Source: Crocinitomicaceae bacterium
GTDB taxonomy: Bacteria > Bacteroidota > Bacteroidia > Flavobacteriales_D > Crocinitomicaceae
NCBI GenBank assembly: GCA_029238665.1
Contig: JAQWFQ010000006.1
Span: 1 to 57,197, forward strand
Direction of reading: 5' to 3'
Length of the DNA: 57,197 nt
Shown here: positions 11,003-23,820 of the stretch, piece by piece
Position numbering within the stretch: the stretch's first letter is position 1
Layout: each line of letters starts with the position of its first letter
Translations under genes and position numbers: made by a program
Notes under the pieces: generated by a model
Databases searched by the model: none
Seen by the model: only the letters and a program-made list of their open reading frames with translations
Told to the model about the DNA's origin: nothing

Positions 11003-11956
11003 CTATTTCCAAACACCTCGGTTTGAAAATGCCTCAATACGTGCCTCAATACGATCCTCTGGTTTGCTGTCTTTCAACTCAGTTAAATACGATTTGATTG
11101 CTTTTTTTACATTTTTAATTGCACCAGTATGATCTCTGTGAGCACCGTTACTTGGCTCTTTGATGATGTCGTCAACAATGCCTAACTTTTTCATATTTGT
11201 TGAAGTCAACTTTAGTGCTTCTGCTGCTTTTTCTTTGTATTCCCATGATCTCCATAAGATTGAAGAACAAGATTCTGGAGAAATAACAGAGTACCATGTG
11301 TTTTCCATCATAACAACTTTATCTCCAACACCAATTCCCAATGCACCACCAGAGGCTCCTTCACCAATGATTATACAAATTACAGGAACTTTCAAACGCA
11401 TCATCTCATAGATGTTTCTTGCGATAGCCTCACCTTGACCTCTTTCTTCTGCTTCCAATCCTGGAAATGCACCTGGAGTATCAATGAAAGTAACAATTGG
11501 TTTGTTGAATTTTTCCGCCATTTTCATTAGACGAAGTGCCTTTCTATATCCTTCAGGGTTAGGCATTCCAAAATTTCTAAATTGACGCATTTTTGTGTTA
11601 ACTCCTTTTTGTTGTCCAATAAACATTACTGTTTCACCATCTAACAAACCGAATCCACCAACCATGGCTTTGTCATCTTTTACATTACGGTCTCCATGTA
11701 GTTCTTGGAATTCACCATCGGTAACACCCTCAATGTACTCCATCGTATATGGGCGGTCTGGGTGACGCGATAATTGCACACGCTGCCATGGGGTTAATCC
11801 TGAAAAAATTTCTTTCGTTTTCGATTTTAATTTTTTCTCTAACTCTCCAATTTTATCTGCCATGTCGACTTCAGTGTCAACACCAATTTCTTTGGTTTTA
11901 ACAATTTGGTCTTCTAATTCCTTTAGCGGTTCTTCGAAATCTAAATAAGTAGCCAT
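11003..11956 (-). CDS. accA: Acetyl-CoA carboxylase carboxyltransferase subunit alpha
   Basis: Transfers the carboxyl group from biotin to acetyl-CoA in the first step of fatty acid synthesis, as a heterotetramer with AccD. The 317-residue length is typical. Diagnostic stretches include [48 protein letters not shown] and [14 protein letters not shown] (oxyanion region). accD is not in the window. Divergent from ispE, so this is a junction of two housekeeping operons. A TAACTTTC box (one mismatch to TAnnTTTG) lies at 11986-11979 on the minus strand, about 22 bases before the ATG. Confidence 0.97.
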
Positions 11957-12006
11957 TCTATCGTCTAATTTGAGAGGCGAAAGTTACAAAAATTGTTTAG
12001 TTGTTC

Positions 12007-12014
12007 TAACTTTG
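12007..12014 (+). promoter_or_regulatory. TAnnTTTG -7 box of ispE
   Basis: TAACTTTG is a perfect consensus match and is separated from the ispE ATG by just four bases (TGTT). The predicted transcription start coincides with the start codon. A good TTTG at the normal -33 distance is lacking. Confidence 0.55.
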
Positions 12015-12018
12015 TGTT

Positions 12019-12816
12019 ATGATATTATTTCCACCAGCTAAGATCAATTTAGGCTTAAATGTTTTGTGTAAGCGCGAAGATGGGTATCATGAAATTGAAT
12101 CATGTATGTATCAAATTCCACTTTTTGATTCATTGGAAATAATAAAAAATGAGTCATTTAAATTTATTCAGACAGGTTTAACGATTGATTCGTCTCAAGA
12201 AAACAACCTTGCAGTAAAGGCTTTTAGGTTAATGCAAGATCAATTTTCAATTGAAAATGTGTACATACATTTATTGAAATCTATTCCTATGGGGGCTGGC
12301 CTTGGAGGTGGTTCTGCAGATGCTTCATATGTCATTATGGGGCTGAATAATTTGTTTCAATTAGACCTCTCGTACGATGTAATGCATTCGTTAGCTAGCG
12401 AGTTGGGAAGTGATTGCCCTTTATTTATTTCGAAAGCAGTTCAAATTGCAACAGGCAGAGGAGAAGTTCTTGATGAGATTGATTTTTCATTAGGTGGGAA
12501 ATTTCTAAAGATTGTCAACACTGGTATTCATATAGGAACCAAAGAAGCCTATTCTAATCTTGATTTTTCTGTTGCTAAACCAATAACAGAAGTATTGGCA
12601 CAACCGATTGAAACATGGAAAGAGGGTTTGGCAAATAGTTTTGAGTCAAATGCGTTTAAAAAACACACTGAGCTGGAAGCTGTAAAATCTCAATTATATA
12701 GTGAAGGAGCAGTATATGCTTCAATGACAGGGAGTGGTTCAACCTTATTTGGAATATATACAGAGAAGCCAGGATTAACCTTCCCTACATGTTATGAAAG
12801 GGTGTTAAAGCTTTAG
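12019..12816 (+). CDS. ispE: 4-diphosphocytidyl-2-C-methyl-D-erythritol kinase
   Basis: GHMP-family kinase of the non-mevalonate isoprenoid pathway that phosphorylates CDP-methylerythritol at the 2-position. The 265-residue protein begins with the family-typical PPAKINLGLNVL (Lys8 catalytic) and has the glycine-rich ATP loop PMGAGLGGGSADAS at about 90-103 and a C-terminal MTGSGSTLFG motif. The start is fixed by the KINL motif and by the promoter box four bases upstream. It overlaps the convergent gene by four bases at its 3' end. Confidence 0.95.
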   Translation: MILFPPAKINLGLNVLCKREDGYHEIESCMYQIPLFDSLEIIKNESFKFIQTGLTIDSSQENNLAVKAFRLMQDQFSIENVYIHLLKSIPMGAGLGGGSADASYVIMGLNNLFQLDLSYDVMHSLASELGSDCPLFISKAVQIATGRGEVLDEIDFSLGGKFLKIVNTGIHIGTKEAYSNLDFSVAKPITEVLAQPIETWKEGLANSFESNAFKKHTELEAVKSQLYSEGAVYASMTGSGSTLFGIYTEKPGLTFPTCYERVLKL

Positions 12817-15062
12817 TGTTTAACGATCTTTTTTGTGATTACATGCCCATTTTCTAATGTAATCTGAATCACAAAAACACCTTTAGTTAAGGTGTTAATG
12901 TTTACCTGAGTTTTGCGTGTTTTTATAGTTGATTGTTGTACAATTTGACCATGCATATTCCTTAGTACGTACTCTGTTCCTTTAACAGTATTAAAAAAGA
13001 GTGTTAGTTTATCTGATGTAGGATTGGGGTATAGGGTCACTAAACGGTCTTGTTCTACCTCTGCTATTGAGGCATTACTGTTAGGGTTTGCTTCAAAGTG
13101 AAATATCCCTCCAAGATCTTGCCCTACGAAAAGATTCAGATTTCCATCTTGGTTAATATCGTTGATATAAAATGAGCTGTAACTTTCAACATCGATGTTT
13201 AAATATGAATTAGAAACGAGGTCAAAATCTTGTCCAGGTGCTAGGTTTCCATCAATATTTGTGTAATAGTTTAGCTTTCCATAAACACCTCCAATAAATA
13301 AGTGAGTTTCACCATTTAAGCGAAAGAAGTGCGGGGCAGCGTACCCATCGGGTAAAGTGGGAGCAATGTCAATGTTTCCTAACAGTGTGTTTTTGAGTTG
13401 AAACGATGGTGCTGTTAACGTTCCTATATTTTCATAATAGAATAATTTCCCAGCCTTATTTCCAACAATTAAATCGAGTAGTCCATCATTATTCAAATCA
13501 AATAATTGTGGGTGAGCGTAGGACAATACATTGATTGAAGTACCTGTGTTATCTTGAATATTCGTTGTTGCGTTTGCATAAACTGCACCAGATCCCACGC
13601 CTGTGTTTTCATAATAGATAAGCGTTCCAGCTTCTGTCCCAAGTATAATGTCATCATCATTATCTCCATCAATATCCCCAAAGGTAGGAACAGAACGTAA
13701 GCCATAATTTTCAGTACTTAGGTTTAAGTAGTCATAATCGATGTAGGTAAATATTGGGCTTGACGAGGTTCCTGTATTTTGGTAATAGGCGAGTGTGCTT
13801 TCTTTGTCTAGCGTAGGTTTGTAGCGATAGAAATTAGCTATAAGCATGTCCTGTAATCCATCTTGATTGACATCTGTAAAAGTTGGTATAGAGCCTGTTC
13901 CATGTTCTATCATTTGGTTTTGCAGAAAATTATCTGAAGTAAAAATAAAGGTTGGATTTGTATTTGTACCAATGTTTTTATAAAAATGAACACTGCGTTC
14001 GTTTATGGAAATGTTTTTTGCATTCGGACAAACAATTAAGTCCTTAATCAAGTCGAAATCAACATCGACCAAATAGGCTGCGGGAAACAGTTGAATGTTT
14101 GTAGGGGTGGTGTTTGAAGGGAATGAATTGTCAACCGATATTATAGGTGAATCTGTATTAACAGCAGTTCCACCGTTGATTAATAAGTTAAGGTTGGTGA
14201 ATGAAACATCTCCAATAACTAAATCAAGAACTCCAGAATTATTGTAGTCAAAAGCGAGCACTGTAGATCCAGCATGTCGCGTTATTTTTTCGAGTGTGTC
14301 TTCTACAAGTTCAGGGTTCGCAATATCACCACCTTGACAAGGGTAGCTAGTGTCATTCAATAAAATGGAATTTGTCGTGATGTTCTCAGAAAATTTTCCC
14401 CAACACTGGTTTTTTAAAACAAATGTTAATGAGTCAGGAATTCCATAGAGTTCCATGCTTTGATTTTGGTGGTACTCTAAAGTTGTTCCTCCTTGATGAA
14501 AGGTTAAAATATCAATGTCAGAATCACCATCAACATCAACAATTGCAGGCACGTCACTTGAATTGATGATAAGGTTGCTGAAATTAGTTGGGTACTGCGA
14601 GTAAATTAAATCGTTAACTAATTCCCACTGAATACCAGTAGCTAGACTTCCAACATTTCGATATACCTTCAGACCGCCTATACCTTGTGTAAACAAGTCT
14701 TTTTTTCCATCATTATCATAGTCCACCATCGTTGCGCGATAGCGAATATTTTCAGGGAATTTATTTTTTGCGTTGTAAGCAAGTTCGTAATGCAAACCAC
14801 CATTGGATTCTTGTGTAAATACACGAATATTGTTTTTACTTCTATCAAAGACAAATAGATCCATGTCACCATCAAAGTCGTAATCAAAGTCAGAAAATTG
14901 AGCATAGTTTAGTCCGCCTCCCCAAGGGTTATCTATTGTATTTGCTCCAACTTTAACAAGGATTGAGTCGTCATATTCAAACCCAAATTGTGCGTGTATA
15001 GCGTCGGTACTTGCAAAAAGTATTAATAGAGATACTGATAGTAGGGATAAATTAATTTTCAT
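12813..15062 (-). CDS. Secreted FG-GAP/VCBS beta-propeller protein with T9SS sorting domain
   Basis: 749 residues. A signal peptide (MKINLSLLSVSLLILFASTDAIHA) precedes many FG-GAP/VCBS-type repeats with Ca-binding D-x-D-x-D-x-D loops such as DYDFDGDMDLFVFD, DYDNDGKKDLF, DVDGDSDIDIL, DINQDGNLNLFVG. These fold as one or two seven-bladed propellers. The end carries a type A T9SS sorting domain starting at VTLYPNPTSDK and ending GHVITKKIVKH, so the protein should be exported through T9SS and attached to or released from the surface. Ligand unknown. Monocistronic, divergent from the SGNH-PKD gene. Confidence 0.88.
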   Translation of the reverse strand: MKINLSLLSVSLLILFASTDAIHAQFGFEYDDSILVKVGANTIDNPWGGGLNYAQFSDFDYDFDGDMDLFVFDRSKNNIRVFTQESNGGLHYELAYNAKNKFPENIRYRATMVDYDNDGKKDLFTQGIGGLKVYRNVGSLATGIQWELVNDLIYSQYPTNFSNLIINSSDVPAIVDVDGDSDIDILTFHQGGTTLEYHQNQSMELYGIPDSLTFVLKNQCWGKFSENITTNSILLNDTSYPCQGGDIANPELVEDTLEKITRHAGSTVLAFDYNNSGVLDLVIGDVSFTNLNLLINGGTAVNTDSPIISVDNSFPSNTTPTNIQLFPAAYLVDVDFDLIKDLIVCPNAKNISINERSVHFYKNIGTNTNPTFIFTSDNFLQNQMIEHGTGSIPTFTDVNQDGLQDMLIANFYRYKPTLDKESTLAYYQNTGTSSSPIFTYIDYDYLNLSTENYGLRSVPTFGDIDGDNDDDIILGTEAGTLIYYENTGVGSGAVYANATTNIQDNTGTSINVLSYAHPQLFDLNNDGLLDLIVGNKAGKLFYYENIGTLTAPSFQLKNTLLGNIDIAPTLPDGYAAPHFFRLNGETHLFIGGVYGKLNYYTNIDGNLAPGQDFDLVSNSYLNIDVESYSSFYINDINQDGNLNLFVGQDLGGIFHFEANPNSNASIAEVEQDRLVTLYPNPTSDKLTLFFNTVKGTEYVLRNMHGQIVQQSTIKTRKTQVNINTLTKGVFVIQITLENGHVITKKIVKH

Positions 15063-15137: not shown

Positions 15138-16415
15138 ATGTACAAACAACTAAAAATGTGTAAAATGTTTCAAAAAATACTCAGTGTTTCCTTATTGTTT
15201 CTTAACATTTGTAATGCGCAAGCGCAAGATAGCGCTTCTGTTTTATTTGTTGGAAATAGCTATGTATATGTAAATAATTTACCTGTGATGTTGGCTGAGT
15301 TATCTACTTCTTTGGGTGATAATGTTATGTTTGACGCTCACGCTGTTGGTGGTGCTACTTTGGAAGATCATGCCGGTAATTCAACCACCTACTCTAAGAT
15401 TAACAGTGAAGCTTGGGATTATGTTGTGCTTCAAGCACAGAGCCAAGAACCATCATTTCCAGATGCTCAAGTAAATGCAAGTACAATTCCTTATGCAATT
15501 CAAATAGCAGATAGTGTGTACGCAAACAACTATTGTTCTGAAATGATGATGTTTATGACATGGGGCAGGGAAAATGGAGACCCTCAATGGGGTCCAATCT
15601 CAACTTTTGATGGAATGAATGCTCGATTGAGAAGCGCATATATTAGGATGGCAGATTCAGTGAATGGTTCTGTGAGTCCGGTTGGAGTTGCATGGAAGTA
15701 TGTTAGAGACAATTACCCAACTATAAACCTATATACTGCTGATGGTTCACACCCCAGTTATGAAGGCAGTTACCTTGCTGCGTGTACATTTTATGCATCA
15801 ATTTTCAGGAAAAGTCCAGTTGGAGCTCCGTTTATTGGGTCACTTTCAACACAAGTTGCGTCAAACCTTCAGAATGCTGCTGCAATAGTGGTTTTAGATA
15901 GTTTAGATCAATGGAATTTACATCCTCAGTCAGCATATACACAAGCGGACTATTCATATGTAACTACAGGTGGAACTGTTGATTTTACAAATTTAAGTAC
16001 TAACGCTACAACATATACTTGGAGTTTTGATGACTTTACTACAAGCCAAGCTGAGAACCCTTCAAATACGTATTTAGCAAATGGAACCTATACGGTTACG
16101 TTACTTGCTGAGAGTCCTTGTGATGTTGATTCAGTAGCGTATACGATTGAAATTACCACCGTGTCTGTGGATAAACTTTCAAAGGCGTATACGTTGAAGT
16201 CATTTGAAGGGGGTGTTTTTGAAATTGTCGGAGTTGGTCCAGTTGATCAAATTAAATTGATTAATCTAAAAGGACAAGAAGTTGCTTTTGATTTTTCAAA
16301 TGGAGCAGAAGCGTTGACGTTGGATATTTCAAATAATGAAAAAGGAATTTATGTTTTACACATACAAAATTCAGAGCGTGTATATTCTATTCGATTGCCT
16401 TTAATTCAAGATTGA
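15138..16415 (+). CDS. Secreted SGNH-hydrolase-like protein with PKD domain
   Basis: 425 residues with a signal peptide (core ILSVSLLFLNICNAQA, cut near residue 29). The SGNH fold is indicated by GNSY at 39-42 (nucleophile Ser41) and DGSHPS at 202-207 (Asp202/His205), so an esterase acting on an envelope or environmental ester is plausible. A PKD domain occupies about 262-345 (TYTWSFDDFTTS, NGTYTVTLLA). The last 75 residues have the strand pattern of a T9SS type A domain (INLKGQEV, GIYVLHI) but no PNP motif. In-frame ATGs at 15156 and 15165 are alternative starts. Substrate not known. Confidence 0.78.
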   Translation: MYKQLKMCKMFQKILSVSLLFLNICNAQAQDSASVLFVGNSYVYVNNLPVMLAELSTSLGDNVMFDAHAVGGATLEDHAGNSTTYSKINSEAWDYVVLQAQSQEPSFPDAQVNASTIPYAIQIADSVYANNYCSEMMMFMTWGRENGDPQWGPISTFDGMNARLRSAYIRMADSVNGSVSPVGVAWKYVRDNYPTINLYTADGSHPSYEGSYLAACTFYASIFRKSPVGAPFIGSLSTQVASNLQNAAAIVVLDSLDQWNLHPQSAYTQADYSYVTTGGTVDFTNLSTNATTYTWSFDDFTTSQAENPSNTYLANGTYTVTLLAESPCDVDSVAYTIEITTVSVDKLSKAYTLKSFEGGVFEIVGVGPVDQIKLINLKGQEVAFDFSNGAEALTLDISNNEKGIYVLHIQNSERVYSIRLPLIQD

Positions 16416-17099: not shown

Positions 17100-17516
17100 T
17101 TAAATCACTTTTAAACTGTCTAATATTTTTCGATTAACTGTAGGAGGGAAGTTTCCTTTTTCGACTTGTTGTAAAATATATTCTGCTGTAATGATAGCTT
17201 TTTCTTTTGTTTCAAACCCTTTAATTCCAGGAATAGAAGGGATGTGCTTTTGATTAATTAACATCGTCTCATCGTTATAAATCTGATATCCATAACCTTG
17301 ATCAGGGTCATTATCAATAATGGTGTAGGAGTACTGACTTGAATTGATCTGAATTTCTTTTGTAATCGAATCCAATAATTCAGAAGTATTTCCTTTGTAA
17401 TTTTCAATAGGAGCTTGACGCCCACCTAGTTTAGACTCTACTACGCCCTCTTGTTTTGATGTTTCATTGCAAGAAGCTAGAAGTAGGCTAAAGCTAATAA
17501 TTAACAGTTGTTTCAT
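17100..17516 (-). CDS. DUF4907 lipoprotein
   Basis: Small lipoprotein of 138 residues with signal MKQLLIISFSLLLASC (lipobox LLASC, Cys16). The C-terminal half fits DUF4907: YGYQIYNDETMLINQKHIPS, GFETKEKAIITAEYIL and the final PPTVNRKILDSLKV. Function unknown. It is the last gene of the kelch operon, only three bases behind the stop of the last kelch gene, so it is almost certainly co-transcribed and may act with those proteins, for example as a membrane-side partner. That role is inference. Confidence 0.75.
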   Translation of the reverse strand: MKQLLIISFSLLLASCNETSKQEGVVESKLGGRQAPIENYKGNTSELLDSITKEIQINSSQYSYTIIDNDPDQGYGYQIYNDETMLINQKHIPSIPGIKGFETKEKAIITAEYILQQVEKGNFPPTVNRKILDSLKVI

Positions 17517-17519
17517 AAA

Positions 17520-18722
17520 CTACAAGAGTACTATTTTTGAATGGTAAACGGCTCCCAATTCAGTATGATTACACGTTACAATGTAATTTCCTGAAATGGC
17601 ATTTGAATTGAAAACATCAAACCCTTTGGATGTTTTATTGATTGAAAAAGCATTCGTTACATCTTGCCCAGTTAAGGAGTGTATTATTATATCTAAATCT
17701 GTAGTAACAATGTCAATTTTAAAATTACCATTAGAAGGGTTTGGGTAAAGATTAACTTCGGAATTGGAGTAATAATCGTCTAAACTTGCAACTTTTCGAT
17801 AGCTGTACATATCATCATTGAAAACACCGTTGTATCCAGAGCCAACAAATGCCGCTCCTTGTAATACAAATGCAATTGCGCCAGACCTACCAGGTCCAGG
17901 ATAATTTGCTCTTTGAGTCCATGTGTCAGAGAAGTAATTGTACTCCCATAAGTCATTTTTAAAATCAGCATTAATGTCTTCACCCATACAAATGAACCCT
18001 TGTGGAAATATACCCCATCCTGCAGCACCTTTTCGGTGCGTACCCGGAAAATTTGCCTTTTGAATCCACTGGTCTGTCTCTGGCTGATATTGCCAGAAAT
18101 CATTTCGCAGTACGCCATCATCTCCTGTACCAACATAGCCCTGTCCTCCCATTGTGAAGCCAACAGCTTCTTTTCGAGCACTTCCTCCAAAGTCGTTTAT
18201 TTGAGTCCAGGTATTTGTTGCTTGACTGTACTTGTACATGTCTTTTGCATAACCATTGTTGTCATAACCAGTACCAACATAGGCTATTGTATCAATAACA
18301 AAAGCTACAGCTTGCCTACGGGCACTTCCTCCAAAATCAGCTTTTTGAGACCAAACATTTGTTGTTGGATCAAACTCCCATAAATCGTTAAAAAATGGAT
18401 TTGTTTGACCTTGGCCTAAACAGACATAACCTTTGTTGTTAATAGCAAACGCTGAAGCTGAGCCTCGATTTAAACCTTGACCAGTATCTCCACCCATTGA
18501 AGGCTCATCGTCCCAATCATCTTGGAGAAATGTATAGGAGTATACTTTACGACGAAATCCTGAAGGATCTAATCCACAAATTGCGTAGCCTTCACCTTCC
18601 ACAACAAAACTTGATGCTACAGTTCTTGGTGCGCCATTAATTGAGTCAGCAACATTCCAAGTGTCTTGCCCCCATGAGTAAAGGCCTAAAATGCTTAGTG
18701 TGATAAGTAATGAGTATTTCAT
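17520..18722 (-). CDS. Kelch-repeat T9SS cargo protein (copy 4 of 4)
   Basis: 400 residues from the ATG at 18722 (MKYSLLITLSILGLYSWGQ signal peptide); an upstream in-frame extension to 18773 would overlap the preceding gene and destroy the signal. The mature part is a six-bladed-type kelch propeller: units of about 48 residues with a GYVGTG-like turn, NDLWEYDP/NDFWQYQP and WTQKANFPG-R motifs. The C-terminus holds a T9SS type A domain (VNLYPNPSNGNFKI). One base separates it from the preceding copy. Expected to be displayed at the surface; ligand unknown. Confidence 0.88.
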   Translation of the reverse strand: MKYSLLITLSILGLYSWGQDTWNVADSINGAPRTVASSFVVEGEGYAICGLDPSGFRRKVYSYTFLQDDWDDEPSMGGDTGQGLNRGSASAFAINNKGYVCLGQGQTNPFFNDLWEFDPTTNVWSQKADFGGSARRQAVAFVIDTIAYVGTGYDNNGYAKDMYKYSQATNTWTQINDFGGSARKEAVGFTMGGQGYVGTGDDGVLRNDFWQYQPETDQWIQKANFPGTHRKGAAGWGIFPQGFICMGEDINADFKNDLWEYNYFSDTWTQRANYPGPGRSGAIAFVLQGAAFVGSGYNGVFNDDMYSYRKVASLDDYYSNSEVNLYPNPSNGNFKIDIVTTDLDIIIHSLTGQDVTNAFSINKTSKGFDVFNSNAISGNYIVTCNHTELGAVYHSKIVLL

Positions 18723-18723
18723 A

Positions 18724-19938
18724 TTATTGAATGATAAGTTTTTGTGGTGCAGTACTGTTTTTCTCTTTATCAAAACCTGTAAGAAAATAAACCCCAGACG
18801 GTAGTCTATCTATATCAAGGACTGGTGTAAATGCTTCTTGAAGAACTTTTTCTCCTGTAGAAGAAATGAGTTCAATTGTTTCAATTGTTGCTGATTTTGA
18901 TGTCAGGTGTATTTTATTTGTAGCTGGATTCGGATAAACAGAGAGCTTATCTTCTAATTCTTCAATTCCAAGAATAGCCGATGGGTTGTACTCATGTACG
19001 CTAGCTTTCTTCCCAGAATACCCTTTTCCTGTACCAACATAAGCGCGGCCATTAGCTGTAAATGCAAAAGCACCTTTTCTTGGCGTTCCACCATATGTAG
19101 CTCTACTTGACCAATGATCTGTAAATGGGTTGTATTCCCATAAATCATCTAACAGTCCACCATTTGCACCTACACAGACAAAACCACGCTGTCCTAGAGT
19201 AAATGTGGATGCTGCAGAACGTGAACTTGCAGGAAAGTCATTTTTTTGAGTCCATTGGCCTGTGCCAGTATTGAACTCCCAAATATCTTTACGATACGCA
19301 TCCTGGTCAGTGCCTAGTCCAACGTAAGCTTTATGATTGATTACGAAACTACTTAGTTGATAGCGTACACCTCCAGGAAATCCAGGTAGTTGAGTCCATT
19401 GATCAATTGCAGGTTTGTACTCCCATAATTGATTGATGTAGTCATTTGGGCCAAGTTTCCCACAGCAAACATATCCTTTAGAACCCGAAACAAATGCCGT
19501 AGCAAAGTACACCCCAAAACCAAAGCCTCCTGGGTAATTTGCTTTTTGAGTCCAGGCGTTTAAGGCAGGATCGTATTCCCAGAAATCATTCAATGTTGTT
19601 GATCCAGACATCGATGCTTCTGCCATATCCATTCCAGTTCCAACATACCCTTTGTTATTAATAGCAAAACCTACTGCATTTCGTCTAACAGAAGCAGGTA
19701 GATCTGCAACTTGAGCCCAGGTATCTAATGTTGGGTCATATTGCCAAAAATCATTGTGAACTATTTCAGCTGTATCAACCCCAGTGCCTACATACCCAAT
19801 GTCATTTATAGAGAATGCTACTGCTCGCGATCGCTTTAGTCCTGAAAAGTCAGATTTTTTTGTCCACGTATTACTTGTTTGAGCATTAGCTAAGCTACAT
19901 ATACTCAGTATGAGAAGTGTATAGATATAATGTTTCAT
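18724..19938 (-). CDS. Kelch-repeat T9SS cargo protein (copy 3 of 4)
   Basis: 404 residues from the ATG at 19938 (MKHYIYTLLILSICSLANAQ signal); an open frame reaching 19995 lies within the preceding gene and was not used. Six kelch units follow, with motifs such as GYVGTGVDTAE, NDFWQYDPTLDTWAQVADLP and RNAVGFAI. Blades two and three carry insertions relative to copy 4. The T9SS domain starts at LSVYPNPATNKI and ends KLIIQ. The stop codon is one base from the next start. Likely co-translated and co-exported with its paralogues. Confidence 0.88.
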   Translation of the reverse strand: MKHYIYTLLILSICSLANAQTSNTWTKKSDFSGLKRSRAVAFSINDIGYVGTGVDTAEIVHNDFWQYDPTLDTWAQVADLPASVRRNAVGFAINNKGYVGTGMDMAEASMSGSTTLNDFWEYDPALNAWTQKANYPGGFGFGVYFATAFVSGSKGYVCCGKLGPNDYINQLWEYKPAIDQWTQLPGFPGGVRYQLSSFVINHKAYVGLGTDQDAYRKDIWEFNTGTGQWTQKNDFPASSRSAASTFTLGQRGFVCVGANGGLLDDLWEYNPFTDHWSSRATYGGTPRKGAFAFTANGRAYVGTGKGYSGKKASVHEYNPSAILGIEELEDKLSVYPNPATNKIHLTSKSATIETIELISSTGEKVLQEAFTPVLDIDRLPSGVYFLTGFDKEKNSTAPQKLIIQ

Positions 19939-19939
19939 T

Positions 19940-21100
19940 CTATTGGAAAATAAATTTGTTCTTATAAACGACTTGACCTTTTGAGATAACAGCATAGTAG
20001 TAGACTCCTGCTATTAATCTTCCTCTATGAATACGAACTTCATTTGTTGAAGTAGATTCTCTCTTAATTACTTTACCATCGGTATTGTATACGACAATGT
20101 CAAATTCATTTAGGTTTTCAGACTTAAACGAGATGTATTCAACTGCAGGGTTAGGGTAACATTTGAATTTATTTTGATCAAACATTTCTTCCAAACCTAA
20201 CAGTGCGTCAAACTCCCAGAAGTCATTGAAGTTAGTACCGTTAGTACCTGTGCCTATATAAGCCCTGTTTCCAATGGTGAATCCTGAAGAAAATCTCCTA
20301 CTTGTGCCATAAAATTCTGTTCGTGCTGTCCATGTATTCGTTGCAGGGTTAAATTCCCATGTTTCTGAATTTACATTACCAAGATTACCTCCATAACCAC
20401 CAATAATATACCCTTTGTTATTTTGATGAAATCCAACAGCGCCTGCAGTGGTAAATCCGGGGAAACTTGCTCTTGATGTCCATAAGTCCAGTGTTGGTTT
20501 GTATTCCCAAAACCCACTATTGGTTTTCACATAGCCTTTGCCATCAATGGTAAAAGTTGACGGCCAAATACTGATGTAAAATGGGGCTGAATTTTTTTCT
20601 AACCAACTGTCAGTTTGAGAATCATATTCATAAACATCATTTCCATCTATATAATATCCTTTTGTTCCAATACTGAACCCTGCTGTATTATCGACAAAGG
20701 TAGGCGTGTTTTCAACCTGAGTCCATGTGTTTGTTATTGGGTCATACCGATAAAAATTTCTATTTGATGCGAGCTGCCCTCCGCCAACAAATCCATATTG
20801 TTCCATTCCGAAAGAGAGAACGCCATAATTACCGTTCCCATTGTTTCCAATATAGTCTGCTTTTTGTGTCCATGAATTTGTACTCGGATCATATTGCCAC
20901 CAATCAGCCAGAACATAATTTACACCTGTTCCATTGTAGTGCCCTAGTCCTATATATCCTTTGTTTCCAATTGAAATTCCCATTCCACGGTGCCTTCCGA
21001 TAGACCCGAAATCAGCGCGTTGAATCCAAGATGCAGATGCAGATGCAGTATCAAGTGTTATCAGTGATAAGGCTAATAGTATTGTCTGTATTAGTTTCAT
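19940..21100 (-). CDS. Kelch-repeat T9SS cargo protein (copy 2 of 4)
   Basis: 386 residues: signal peptide (MKLIQTILLALSLITLDTASASA), kelch units (GYIGLGHYNGTGVNYV, WWQYDPSTNSWTQKADY, GFSIGTKGYYIDG) and a T9SS domain from FKCYPNPAVEYI to the end. The first blade is closest to the first blade of copy 1 (both have GLGHYNG and a DWW-YDPSTN motif), which suggests these two arose by the most recent duplication. Its ATG overlaps the stop of copy 1 as ATGA (21097-21100), a sign of translational coupling. Confidence 0.88.
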   Translation of the reverse strand: MKLIQTILLALSLITLDTASASASWIQRADFGSIGRHRGMGISIGNKGYIGLGHYNGTGVNYVLADWWQYDPSTNSWTQKADYIGNNGNGNYGVLSFGMEQYGFVGGGQLASNRNFYRYDPITNTWTQVENTPTFVDNTAGFSIGTKGYYIDGNDVYEYDSQTDSWLEKNSAPFYISIWPSTFTIDGKGYVKTNSGFWEYKPTLDLWTSRASFPGFTTAGAVGFHQNNKGYIIGGYGGNLGNVNSETWEFNPATNTWTARTEFYGTSRRFSSGFTIGNRAYIGTGTNGTNFNDFWEFDALLGLEEMFDQNKFKCYPNPAVEYISFKSENLNEFDIVVYNTDGKVIKRESTSTNEVRIHRGRLIAGVYYYAVISKGQVVYKNKFIFQ

Positions 21101-22317
21101 TTTGTGATGATTAGTTTTGTAGTCTTCATACTTAAGTCTTTATACTTTAAGCGACAGTAATAGGTTCCTGAAGGTAGGTCGATTGTTTCTAATGTTAATT
21201 TGCTTTCTTCTAAACGGACATTTCGTACAACCTTTCCAACGGAATTAATTAATTCCAATGTTGTATTTTTCAATTCAAAATTATCGTTTAAATTAAGGTC
21301 AAACGTAACGAATTCTGATGCAGGGTTTGGATATGTTTTTATCGTTGATTGTTCTAGTTTTTGTTCTAGCGTAGAAAGGTATGAGTCGTAAACCCACCAA
21401 TCACAGAAGTTTACACCATTTGTACCTAGGCCAGCATATATATAGCCGTTTAATACAATTGAAGTAAGGTACCTCCTGGGTATTCCTTGAAAATCATCGA
21501 CCTGAATCCAGTTGTTTGCTGTTGGGTCATATTCCCACATGTCGCTATAGTTTGTTCCAGAGAATGTTTCTAAACCTGTGAGTATATATCCCTTACCTCC
21601 CAGTTCAAAACCACTAGATTCTTGCCTCATTAAAGGGCCAGCTGCTGCTTTTTGAGTCCATGAGTCAAGGCTTGGATTGTACTGCCAAAAATCGTTAGAA
21701 GAACCTGATGATAAGTTTCCTGTACCAACGTAACCGAACCCTCCAATACTGAAACCTACAGCAGCTGTACGGCTACTTCCTCCAAAAAAGGCTACCTGTG
21801 TCCATACATCAAGTGTAGGGCTGTATTTATAAAATGAACTGGTACGACCAAAGTTTGTTTCTCCAGTGCCTACATAAGCATTTCCGTCAATAACAAAAGA
21901 GACAGCACCCCTTCGTCCTGTTCCAATAAATGAGGCAATGGAGCTCCATGAATTTGTTACAGGATTGTATTTAAAAAAGTCTTGAACTAAAATACTTCCA
22001 TTAGCTGAAGTTCTACCAGTTCCAACGTAACCAAGTTCATCAATGGTAAATCCAACAGCATCGTAACATGCTCCGCCTAAATAATCTGCTTTTTGTGTCC
22101 AAGCATTTGTAGAAGGGTCATATTCCCACCAATCATTGAATAGGACATTTACTCCAGCACCATTATAGTGACCTAAACCAACGTATGCTTTGGTTGTTAT
22201 TGCAATACCAACTGTTCTGTGACGAGCAGTTCCTTCAAAATCTGATTTTTGAACCCAGCCAAAAGCAAATGAAAGGTTGCTTAGTAATACCGATGTGAGA
22301 ACTAAGAATAACTTCAT
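21097..22317 (-). CDS. Kelch-repeat T9SS cargo protein (copy 1 of 4)
   Basis: 406 residues with signal peptide MKLFLVLTSVLLSNLSFAFG, six kelch units (GLGHYNGAGVNVL, DWWEYDPSTNAWTQKADYLG, GFGYVGTGNLSSG, DMWEYDPTANNWIQVDDF) and a T9SS domain starting IKTYPNPASEFV. The start codon shares one base with the stop of the GEVED gene (TAATG), and its own stop overlaps the next ATG. Surface-displayed propellers of this kind often bind glycans or proteins; the ligand here is unknown. Confidence 0.88.
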   Translation of the reverse strand: MKLFLVLTSVLLSNLSFAFGWVQKSDFEGTARHRTVGIAITTKAYVGLGHYNGAGVNVLFNDWWEYDPSTNAWTQKADYLGGACYDAVGFTIDELGYVGTGRTSANGSILVQDFFKYNPVTNSWSSIASFIGTGRRGAVSFVIDGNAYVGTGETNFGRTSSFYKYSPTLDVWTQVAFFGGSSRTAAVGFSIGGFGYVGTGNLSSGSSNDFWQYNPSLDSWTQKAAAGPLMRQESSGFELGGKGYILTGLETFSGTNYSDMWEYDPTANNWIQVDDFQGIPRRYLTSIVLNGYIYAGLGTNGVNFCDWWVYDSYLSTLEQKLEQSTIKTYPNPASEFVTFDLNLNDNFELKNTTLELINSVGKVVRNVRLEESKLTLETIDLPSGTYYCRLKYKDLSMKTTKLIITK

Positions 22318-23453
22318 TATTTAACAACTAATTTTTGAATAGATACGTGATTGTTAGAGGTGAGTTCAATGAAATAAAATCCGGATAAAAACGTACTGAC
22401 ATCTATCGATTGATCTAATTTAATATGCTGAGATGTAATCAATTTTCCTTGTGCATCACGTATATTAATAAGTCCTGTGTAATTGGTGATTTGAATGCTG
22501 TTTTTTGCTGGGTTAGGAACAATACTAAATTGTGCATTGTTTAGTTCGTTAACGCCTAAAAATTCAGGGTTTATAGAAATGTCGTAAGGCCCCATGCTAA
22601 ATAACCAGCCATCAACGATAACATAGACAGAGTCATGACCTGAAGTATTGACTGTCAGCTTTGATTCAACACCACAGTCAGGATTATCATCATTTACACA
22701 TAAAACATTTCCATCGGTATCAAACACAGATAAGAAGGTGTCAAAACTAGAACCACATAAAGAGATGTTTAATGCAGCTGTTGATGGGTCCGGTAAAATT
22801 AAATAATAGACATCTGGAGAAGCATAAACGGGGTTTTGATTGCTGTAGCAAATTGAATTGTCATGCGTTTCAGAGAAGGGCAAAGAACTTACAATTCGAG
22901 GGTCTGATATGTCATCACCAATGTAACCAGAACAGTCAACACCATTCTGTATGTAAACACTAAAGTCAGTCATTGAACCCCAGGTGAAATTGCCACAAGG
23001 GTCTATGGGTAAACTTACATTTTCGGCTTGCACAACGCGCATTCTTGACTGTCCAGATGTAGCTCCACTAGGAACAAGGAAGTTAAATTGGCTTAATGAC
23101 GTTGGAGGTGTTCCTGACCAAGTTCCAATTGTTTCAGTATTATCAAAATTTCCATCAAGATTGAAGTCTATCCACGCTTGACCGTTTCCACTATAATTCC
23201 CTCCACAAGTCCCAAACTGGATATCAGCTGTGTATAGGGATCCTGCATCTAAAAAAGCGGTTTGGGAAAGAAACTCTTCAATACCTGTTGTTGCTGGACA
23301 CCCTGTGTATGAAATTGAACCAGTAACTCCAATTAAAGAAAGTGATTCGATATTGGAATCGGCTGTAGATGAAGGTCCGCCAGACATGCAGTATTGTGAT
23401 TGACTGTGAAATGTGAAACTGACTAATGCAGTTAAGAGTATTATTTTTTTCAT
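22317..23453 (-). CDS. Secreted GEVED/PPC-domain protein with T9SS sorting domain
   Basis: 378 residues, first gene of the kelch operon. Signal peptide (MKKIILLTALVSFTFHSQS), then a GEVED domain at about 20-170 (YCMSGGPSS..., GNGQAWIDFNLDGNFDNTE, SRMRVVQAEN), a bacterial pre-peptidase C-terminal-like (PPC) domain at about 185-295 (YYLILPDPSTAALNISLCGS, FDTFLSVFDTDG), and a T9SS type A domain from FSIVPNPAKNSI. GEVED and PPC domains are common accessory modules of secreted Bacteroidota proteins. No catalytic domain is present, so a structural or binding role is likely. The start codon follows a 196-base intergenic region with palindromes. Confidence 0.87.
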   Translation of the reverse strand: MKKIILLTALVSFTFHSQSQYCMSGGPSSTADSNIESLSLIGVTGSISYTGCPATTGIEEFLSQTAFLDAGSLYTADIQFGTCGGNYSGNGQAWIDFNLDGNFDNTETIGTWSGTPPTSLSQFNFLVPSGATSGQSRMRVVQAENVSLPIDPCGNFTWGSMTDFSVYIQNGVDCSGYIGDDISDPRIVSSLPFSETHDNSICYSNQNPVYASPDVYYLILPDPSTAALNISLCGSSFDTFLSVFDTDGNVLCVNDDNPDCGVESKLTVNTSGHDSVYVIVDGWLFSMGPYDISINPEFLGVNELNNAQFSIVPNPAKNSIQITNYTGLINIRDAQGKLITSQHIKLDQSIDVSTFLSGFYFIELTSNNHVSIQKLVVK

Positions 23454-23649: not shown

Positions 23650-23820
23650 ATGACCACAGAAAACACACTACAAGAAGAGATTAATAAATTAAGAAGCCAA
23701 CTTACAGGGGATATGTTTACGGATATGAACATCAAAGACGAGATCCATAACCTAGAGATGAAGTTGAAAGGCGTTAAGCCAATGGACAGTCATTTTGACT
23801 GTATCGGGTGTGGCTCTTAA
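23650..23820 (+). CDS. Small conserved-looking protein with C-terminal Cys-x2-Cys motif (56 aa)
   Basis: An open frame of 56 residues starting MTTENTLQEEINKLRSQL and ending DSHFDCIGCGS. The first 40 residues are charged and helical (probable coiled coil, with KDEIHNLEMKLKG); the tail PMDSHFDCIGCGS carries two cysteines that could bind a metal or form a disulfide. Amino-acid composition, the clean start and the stop just ahead of a convergent gene all look like real coding sequence. It falls below common gene-finding length cut-offs. I cannot name the family. Confidence 0.7.
   Translation: MTTENTLQEEINKLRSQLTGDMFTDMNIKDEIHNLEMKLKGVKPMDSHFDCIGCGS

What the first reader, a model, noticed from the sequence alone, without database searches (positions are those of the whole stretch)
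17100..23453. Operon of four tandem kelch/T9SS paralogues with a GEVED protein and a DUF4907 lipoprotein
Six genes are packed with overlaps or gaps of no more than three bases (TAATG, ATGA, single-base gaps). Four encode complete kelch propellers with signal peptide and T9SS type A domain but different blade loops, the pattern expected for duplicated surface proteins that diverge in ligand specificity. The conserved, membrane-anchored DUF4907 protein at the end could be their common partner. This is the best candidate in the window for an undescribed surface-recognition or adhesion system.
Basis: partly seen in the sequence, partly recalled or inferred. Interest (0 to 1): 0.75.

Follow-up and report, generated by a model that had tools for sequence, protein, structure and literature searches.

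The report
Conserved kelch–DUF4907 surface-protein operon
Six tightly packed genes for four different propeller-shaped proteins with export tags and two partners turn out to be a fixed set found in many members of a bacterial family, and their core pair sits in other bacteria beside spare genes of the machine that builds the outer membrane.

Summary
In detail: GEVED–K1–K2–K3–K4–DUF4907, gaps or overlaps of at most 4 bases. DUF4907 is single-copy wherever found. In relatives (Crocinitomicaceae by record titles, and a second family) K1–K4 are four ancient orthologue groups in fixed order; K3–K4–DUF4907 is the usual core. Ligand-face loops are as conserved as strands within each group, so ongoing diversification is not supported; between paralogues those loops differ most, an old fixed specialisation. 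Kelch adjoins DUF4907 in 53 of 59 order-level loci and 22 of 22 outside loci. Outside, a single kelch protein, mostly a predicted lipoprotein, usually lies near BamG- and BamH-like genes and a LytS/LytTR pair. Two DUF4270 copies go with DUF4907 (14 of 15 genomes against 10 of 58). Best reading: an obligate envelope module, here a heteromeric T9SS-displayed complex, elsewhere perhaps an inducible accessory of outer-membrane protein assembly. Function is inferred, not shown. 'DUF4907' is in no paper of the held library.

The parts
22317..23453 (-). GEVED: signal peptide (by inspection), GEVED domain, C-terminal T9SS type A sorting domain; first gene of the operon
   Evidence: PF20009 60.5 bits, PF18962 54.6 bits; orthologue in many but not all syntenic loci
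21097..22317 (-). K1: kelch propeller with T9SS type A sorting domain
   Evidence: PF24681 64.0, PF18962 39.0; one clade in the tree; missing from many relatives
19940..21100 (-). K2: kelch propeller with T9SS type A sorting domain
   Evidence: PF24681 52.1, PF18962 35.9; one clade, sister to K1
18724..19938 (-). K3: kelch propeller with T9SS type A sorting domain; six blades predicted
   Evidence: PF24681 85.4, PF18962 41.2; model pLDDT 89.6; kelch-domain matches
17520..18722 (-). K4: kelch propeller with T9SS type A sorting domain; the kelch type that adjoins DUF4907
   Evidence: PF24681 91.2, PF18962 28.8; scanned with three extra leading bases; 53 of 53 adjacent kelch genes are K4 type
17100..17516 (-). 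DUF4907: short lipoprotein (lipobox LLASC), C-terminal domain predicted as three strands and two helices
   Evidence: PF16250 59.1 bits; alignment (Cys invariant in 39 rows); model, blocks from residue 61 on at mean pLDDT 94-98

Best explanation
The operon encodes a fixed surface module. SHOWN: six co-directional, nearly overlapping genes; four kelch proteins of four ancient orthologue groups with T9SS sorting tails; one DUF4907 protein with a lipobox; K3-K4-DUF4907 as the usual core; a kelch-DUF4907 neighbourhood in other families and in one genome outside the class. INFERRED: K1-K4 and GEVED are exported by the type IX system and held at the surface, where the non-interchangeable propellers form a heteromeric complex through their conserved DA/BC faces; DUF4907 is their anchored partner or assembly factor, working with K4 first. 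INFERRED, weaker: the ancestral task of the pair is in outer-membrane protein biogenesis. In other lineages one kelch surface lipoprotein and DUF4907 would work with a second BamG-BamH-like pair as an alternative canopy of the BAM machine, switched on by the neighbouring LytS/LytTR system; in this family no second BamG was seen and T9SS-tailed kelch paralogues stand where the lipoprotein stands elsewhere.
For: Synteny. DUF4907 next to kelch: 53 of 59 order-level loci and 67 of 69 K3-selected loci with an uncut K4, 22 of 22 outside loci. Of 24 DUF4907-negative genomes of the family that I searched, one (G009) has the K genes, K4 running off its contig end; the best hits in the other 23 are 236 bits or less against 591. 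Four clades at SH-aLRT 99-100, each with family f3 members. Loops as conserved as strands. Bam link in the 22 outside loci: DUF4270 in 20, BamG in 18, histidine kinase and response regulator in 16 each. The unlinked DUF4270 of two such genomes is a BamH_fj equivalog (640 and 609 bits, cut-off 420; a third scores 415), five linked ones score 0 to 47. Two DUF4270 copies: 14 of 15 genomes with DUF4907 against 10 of 58 with one copy (Fisher 7e-8; genus g70 10 of 10 against 0 of 7). B. theta BamI is a six-bladed propeller contacting BamH (PMC12578637, passages).
Against: No interaction, localisation or phenotype data. The window genome has one BamG and one DUF4270 hit, on other contigs, and 22 other operon-bearing genomes show one strong BamG each, so the BAM link is absent in this lineage. 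Of the 22 outside genomes 7 do not show two pairs: G571 and G432 have neither gene near the kelch, G559 and G592 have only the DUF4270 linked and it is their only hit, G319, G548 and G563 show only the linked BamG and DUF4270. Outside the family DUF4907 often lacks a lipobox (found by regular expression in 6 of 17, which undercounts, e.g. L207) and starts with a likely membrane anchor, which would place it in the periplasm, away from a surface kelch. One cassette (G417, L272) has kelch, BamG and DUF4270 without DUF4907. Published data argue against a rescuing BamG2H2 complex in B. theta (PMC12578637) and find no appreciable expression on rich medium in F. johnsoniae (PMC12611786).
Confidence: 0.45

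Rival explanations
1. Adhesion or recognition array: four T9SS-displayed propellers bind different external ligands and diversify in their loops, DUF4907 being a shared anchor.
For: Window paralogues are less alike in DA+BC loops (0.19-0.34) than in strands (0.29-0.44); T9SS tails.
Against: Within orthologues these loops are as conserved as strands; no expansion or reshuffling seen in the 80 loci; one DUF4907 in each genome that has it.
Confidence: 0.2
2. Envelope sensor: the kelch protein senses a surface condition, DUF4907 relays it in the periplasm, and LytS/LytTR controls the BamG/BamH-like pair or other targets.
For: Kinase and LytTR-type regulator clusters within the fetched flanks in 16 of 22 outside loci, in several abutting or overlapping DUF4907 (Pfam names from the L199 proteins); DUF4907 apparently membrane-anchored in several.
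Against: The four neighbours of the window operon scanned are not such genes; the pair is missing from the fetched flanks of 6 of 22 outside loci; one sensor would hardly need four kelch subunits.
Confidence: 0.2
3. DUF4907 is a dedicated periplasmic folding or export factor for its kelch neighbour, and the kelch proteins act independently of each other.
For: One DUF4907 goes with one to four kelch genes; it lies beside the kelch gene in most loci and occurs with a lipobox or with a likely membrane anchor.
Against: Solitary T9SS kelch genes exist in relatives without DUF4907, as does a kelch cassette without it, so propeller export does not need it in general; the order of K1-K4 is fixed.
Confidence: 0.2
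4. Secreted enzymes (mutarotase/NanM or galactose-oxidase type) on a kelch scaffold.
For: Pfam NANM (PF24996) is over its cut-off of 45 in K3 (57.4) and K1 (47.0), just under in K4 (44.3); NCBIfam mutarotase models match at 28-67 bits.
Against: NCBIfam matches are far below cut-offs of 243 to 416 bits; the Pfam matches cover parts of the model and may reflect kelch repeats in general. Catalytic residues were not examined. Raised from 0.05 to 0.07 on re-reading.
Confidence: 0.07

Closest known systems
BamI and the extracellular canopy (BamG-BamK) of the Bacteroidota BAM complex (PMC12578637, PMC12611786)
   Same: Six-bladed propeller at the cell surface; the kelch-DUF4907 pair of other lineages is encoded near BamG- and BamH-like genes.
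   Different: BamI is a lipoprotein with an Ig-like domain (paper); the window proteins are kelch-type, T9SS-tailed and not near bam genes. Homology to BamI was not shown: no chain named BamI is among the best 60 of 83 hits.
BamG2-BamH2 (second copies in F. johnsoniae and B. thetaiotaomicron)
   Same: In 15 of 22 outside genomes the BamG/DUF4270 pair near kelch-DUF4907 is a second copy; the DUF4270 member is shorter than the main one.
   Different: Identity with the published BamG2/BamH2 was not tested by sequence. Neither main text holds 'kelch' or 'DUF4270'; 'DUF4907' was looked for in PMC12578637 only.
Kelch (KLHL/Keap1-type) propellers
   Same: Fold and six blades (K3).
   Different: Bacterial, with T9SS tails, in a set of four fixed paralogues.
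Solitary T9SS-length kelch proteins of genomes without the operon
   Same: Similar length; the K3 profile with its tail region aligns along nearly all of most of them.
   Different: Single genes without DUF4907 in the 13 loci read; outside the four K clades in the tree.

Membership tests
T9SS type A cargo | C-terminal Por_Secre_tail domain over cut-off | tested here: met
   K1-K4 and GEVED over both the PF18962 and TIGR04183 cut-offs
T9SS type A cargo | N-terminal signal peptide | tested here: inconclusive
   Typical by inspection of the translations; no predictor was run
T9SS type A cargo | T9SS machinery in the same genome | not tested
   No search made
Kelch propeller | Kelch repeats and closed six-bladed fold | tested here: met
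   Repeats K1-K4; fold for K3 only
DUF4907 (PF16250) | Score over the curated cut-off | tested here: met
   59.1 against 25 bits
Bacteroidota BAM complex subunits | BamG or BamH encoded in the operon | tested here: not met
   None of the six genes matches; the genome's single hits are on other contigs
BamI | Surface lipoprotein with Ig-like domain and six-bladed propeller | tested here: not met
   Window kelch proteins have T9SS tails and no lipobox by inspection; K3 is six-bladed; an Ig-like domain other than the tail was not looked for
N-acetylneuraminate epimerase (NanM) / mutarotases | Score over curated cut-offs | tested here: inconclusive
   NCBIfam 28-67 bits against 243-416: not met; Pfam PF24996 over its cut-off in K3 and K1 only
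BamG2-BamH2 cassette (outside loci) | Second BamG and BamH-like copy, distinct from the main pair | tested here: met
   Met in 15 of 22 genomes, not in 7; linked BamG on one side of a branch, support 84; five linked DUF4270 proteins far below the BamH_fj cut-off

The most novel reading that the evidence does not exclude
Kelch-DUF4907 defines an undescribed, widespread Bacteroidota accessory of outer-membrane assembly: an inducible second BAM canopy (a second BamG-BamH pair plus a kelch propeller lipoprotein and DUF4907, under LytS/LytTR control). In Crocinitomicaceae it evolved into a T9SS-delivered four-propeller surface complex, meaning that the secretion system would supply parts of an assembly machine that works on the outside of the cell.
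Probability: 0.2. Interest if true: 0.88.

Novelty: new variant of a known kind. Interest (0 to 1): 0.62.

Why it matters
BamG2 and BamH2 are dispensable paralogues without a known role in two model Bacteroidota (passages and sections read of PMC12611786 and PMC12578637). If the second BamG/BamH-like pair found here is the same pair, its recurrent kelch-DUF4907-LytS/LytTR neighbourhood gives that open question testable partners and a likely regulator. For the family of the window it shows a four-propeller set in fixed order without expansion, which suggests a complex rather than a pool of adhesins, and it gives DUF4907 a functional context.

Tried and rejected
Loop diversification: rejected for orthologues. 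Enzyme reading: made unlikely, not excluded (Pfam NANM). DUF4907 fold relatives: Foldseek against PDB gave nothing at E 0.001 or better; a profile search of PDB sequences gave three matches at E 0.29 or worse, all to the N-terminal part. K4-DUF4907 gene fusion: none among the open frames of 72-177 aa in the hit tables. Bacteroidota promoter motif (consensus recalled) on the operon's strand just upstream of GEVED: none; 9 matches in the window against 4.6 expected, reached by 6 of 100 shuffles. Wrong accession: one search searched PF16248 (DUF4905) by my mistake. A DUF4907 remnant in the L272 gap: no long open frame in the three frames of 290 bases translated.

Limits of counts. Loop classes come from the K3 model and were carried to K1, K2 and K4 by alignment; that DA and BC form the ligand face is recalled. 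Sequences are related, so p-values are not independent tests. One search kept the best 80 of 472 relatives, so leans to close kin. The order-level linkage examined 59 loci (window apart), not every DUF4907 hit; L043 counts as adjacent though its K4 is a fragment. The six misses: L025, L089, L090 and L092 no kelch found, L031 contig edge, L069 an insertion (K4 1.5 kb away in L091). The two K3-selected misses are L119 and L145; 8 of the 80 had no K4 call and 3 a K4 cut by the contig. The 24 DUF4907-negative family genomes are those listed, not all. In one search G602 has two DUF4270 hits and one; both versions were tested. BamG copy number in the family was read in 22 genomes and the window's own, DUF4270 only in the window's own and G040. 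One search used 37 of 40 order-level DUF4907 rows (L025, L043 and L090 dropped) and 17 outside loci of 22 for DUF4907 and for kelch; its regular expression misses some lipoboxes and picks an early Cys in some. Tree: orthologues from 22 chosen loci (rows over 330 aa), 15 of the outside kelch proteins, 13 solitary ones; one outside kelch (L210) and one solitary one (L249) stand apart from their groups.

Full report
1. Observation. The six genes lie at 17100-23453 on the minus strand in the order GEVED, K1, K2, K3, K4, DUF4907. Junctions: TAATG (one shared base), ATGA (four), gaps of one, one and three bases. The named domains are over Pfam cut-offs. K3 is predicted as a six-bladed propeller matching human and designed kelch domains. 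The DUF4907 C-terminal domain is predicted with confidence (blocks of pLDDT 94-98 from residue 61) and Foldseek finds no PDB match at E 0.001.

2. A fixed set, not an expanding family. DUF4907 is single-copy in each genome where it is found: 20 of 24 same-genus relatives; one of the other four (G009) has GEVED, K2, K3 and a K4 that runs off the contig end. In the order sample 65 of 299 genomes have it. The relatives are Crocinitomicaceae and other Flavobacteriales by most record titles; the window's family is inferred from contigs of equal length (G016 contig of 295096 bases, JAKVAR010000001.1). phmmer assigns the kelch genes to their own window orthologues, in the same order where present, in same-genus loci, other genera and family f3. 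Among the 80 loci selected by K3 (best 80 of 472), 26 show the full set, 23 lack only K1, 4 have only K3-K4-DUF4907, and 27 are other subsets, contig cuts or split frames; no locus shows another order apart from a K2 fragment overlapping K1 in L125. K4 lies directly upstream of DUF4907 in 53 of 59 order-level loci, and DUF4907 follows in 67 of 69 K3-selected loci with an uncut K4. Of 24 DUF4907-negative family genomes searched, 23 lack the operon (best kelch hit 236 bits or less); 13 solitary kelch genes were read in such genomes.

3. History and loops. In a maximum-likelihood tree of 109 kelch proteins (quick search) K1, K2, K3 and K4 are each one clade (SH-aLRT 99-100), each holding family f3 sequences; K1 and K2 are sisters (98). 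So the duplications precede the split of these families, unless the operon moved between them. Entropy of DA+BC loops equals that of strands in all four groups (K3 1.17 against 1.22, K4 1.26 against 1.28, K1 1.16 against 1.19, K2 1.32 against 1.41; no difference significant), while AB+CD loops are more variable, clearly so in K3 and K4. Between the window paralogues DA+BC loops are less alike than strands. This fits four old, fixed, different faces. That DA and BC loops form the ligand face of kelch domains is recalled, not tested.

4. Outside the family. In 296 genomes sampled over the phylum 24 have DUF4907, the window's own and G040 of its family included. All 22 loci outside the family have a kelch gene beside it, in one (G432) on the other side. 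That kelch is a single gene; a regular expression finds a lipobox in 15 of 17 examined, with two or more acidic residues behind it in 8, a feature of surface lipoproteins. In the fetched flanks of the 22 loci a DUF4270 protein occurs in 20, a BamG-family barrel in 18, and a histidine kinase and a response regulator in 16 each (clusters by BLAST, names from the representatives; in L207 the kinase pair may be a different one). A DUF6268 protein (Pfam name from L199 only) precedes kelch in 9 of the 22.

5. Second BamG/BamH. BamG is found in all 42 genomes tested. Fifteen of 22 with DUF4907 have two strong BamG hits and two DUF4270 hits, one pair beside the kelch; the 20 without DUF4907 have one strong BamG each and one DUF4270 (none in G359). 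The other seven with DUF4907: G319, G548 and G563 show only the linked BamG and DUF4270 (I cannot tell whether a main copy was missed); G559 and G592 have a linked DUF4270 as their only one and BamG elsewhere; G571 and G432 have neither near the kelch. Linked BamG sequences fall on one side of a branch (14 against 31 unlinked, support 84, long branches noted). Unlinked DUF4270 proteins of G337 and G516 are BamH_fj equivalogs (640 and 609 bits against 420; that of G492 scores 415); five linked ones score 31-47 or nothing. In the phylum sample 15 of 73 DUF4270-bearing genomes have two copies; 14 of these have DUF4907, against 10 of 58 with one (Fisher 7e-8; inside genus g70, 10 of 10 against 0 of 7). 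The exception, G417, has BamG, DUF4270, DUF6268-like, kelch and kinase-regulator genes but no DUF4907.

6. Papers. PMC12611786 (outline with abstract, sections 6 and 9, passages) reports BamG2 and BamH2 in F. johnsoniae, not appreciably expressed on rich medium and deletable. PMC12578637 (passages only) reports BamG2-BamH2 as a putative operon in B. thetaiotaomicron, BamI as a six-bladed propeller contacting BamH, and data arguing against a rescuing BamG2H2 complex. Searches in the held library: 'DUF4907' 0 papers; kelch with type IX secretion and Flavobacteri 0; kelch with Crocinitomi 0; kelch with Bacteroidota and surface lipoprotein 0. BamG2/BamH2 in the biological sense appear only in the two papers among the 20 of 34 listed. 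The library lacks most subscription papers. Neither Bam paper holds 'kelch' in its main text.

7. The window lineage differs. Its genome has one BamG hit (C8) and one DUF4270 hit (C17, between glmS-like and glgA-like genes by my reading), on other contigs than the operon. 22 other operon genomes have one strong BamG each. DUF4907 here is a lipoprotein by its motif (Cys invariant in the 39 rows); in the order-level set 22 of 36 with a recognised lipobox have two or more acidic residues behind it, whereas outside a lipobox was recognised in 6 of 17 and many of the others begin with a likely membrane anchor. So the shared unit is kelch plus DUF4907; partners differ by lineage.

8. Verdict. A real, old and co-inherited envelope module for which I found no description in the searches named; mechanism inferred as a heteromeric surface complex with DUF4907 as partner (0.45), with an outer-membrane-assembly role as the bolder reading (0.2).

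Noticed in passing
window 23650-23820 (+): Short open frame on the plus strand between the operon and the DUF4159 gene, ending in a cysteine-bearing DCIGCGS tail (read, not searched).
   Followed up: no
window 12813-15062 (-) and 15138-16415 (+): Two further T9SS-tailed proteins near the operon: an FG-GAP repeat protein and a DUF4886-PKD protein.
   Followed up: partly
L043 (G015): Operon apparently decaying: only a K4 fragment and a DUF4907 with a stop in the matched frame.
   Followed up: no
L091 (G183), 11373-12886: About 1.5 kb inserted between K4 and DUF4907, with an open frame of 232 aa.
   Followed up: no
L272 (G417): Kelch-BamG-DUF4270-DUF6268-like cassette with three kinase/regulator pairs in the fetched stretch and no DUF4907.
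   Followed up: partly
L255-L258, L260: Solitary kelch genes in family genomes without the operon lie next to a gene whose product holds MRFQPIKQFNTILQQEY.
   Followed up: no
L111, L113, L129, L138, L150, L157, L158: Records titled Chitinophaga, Chryseobacterium, Polynucleobacter or Sphingomonadales carry this operon or part of it; the titles look mislabelled.
   Followed up: no
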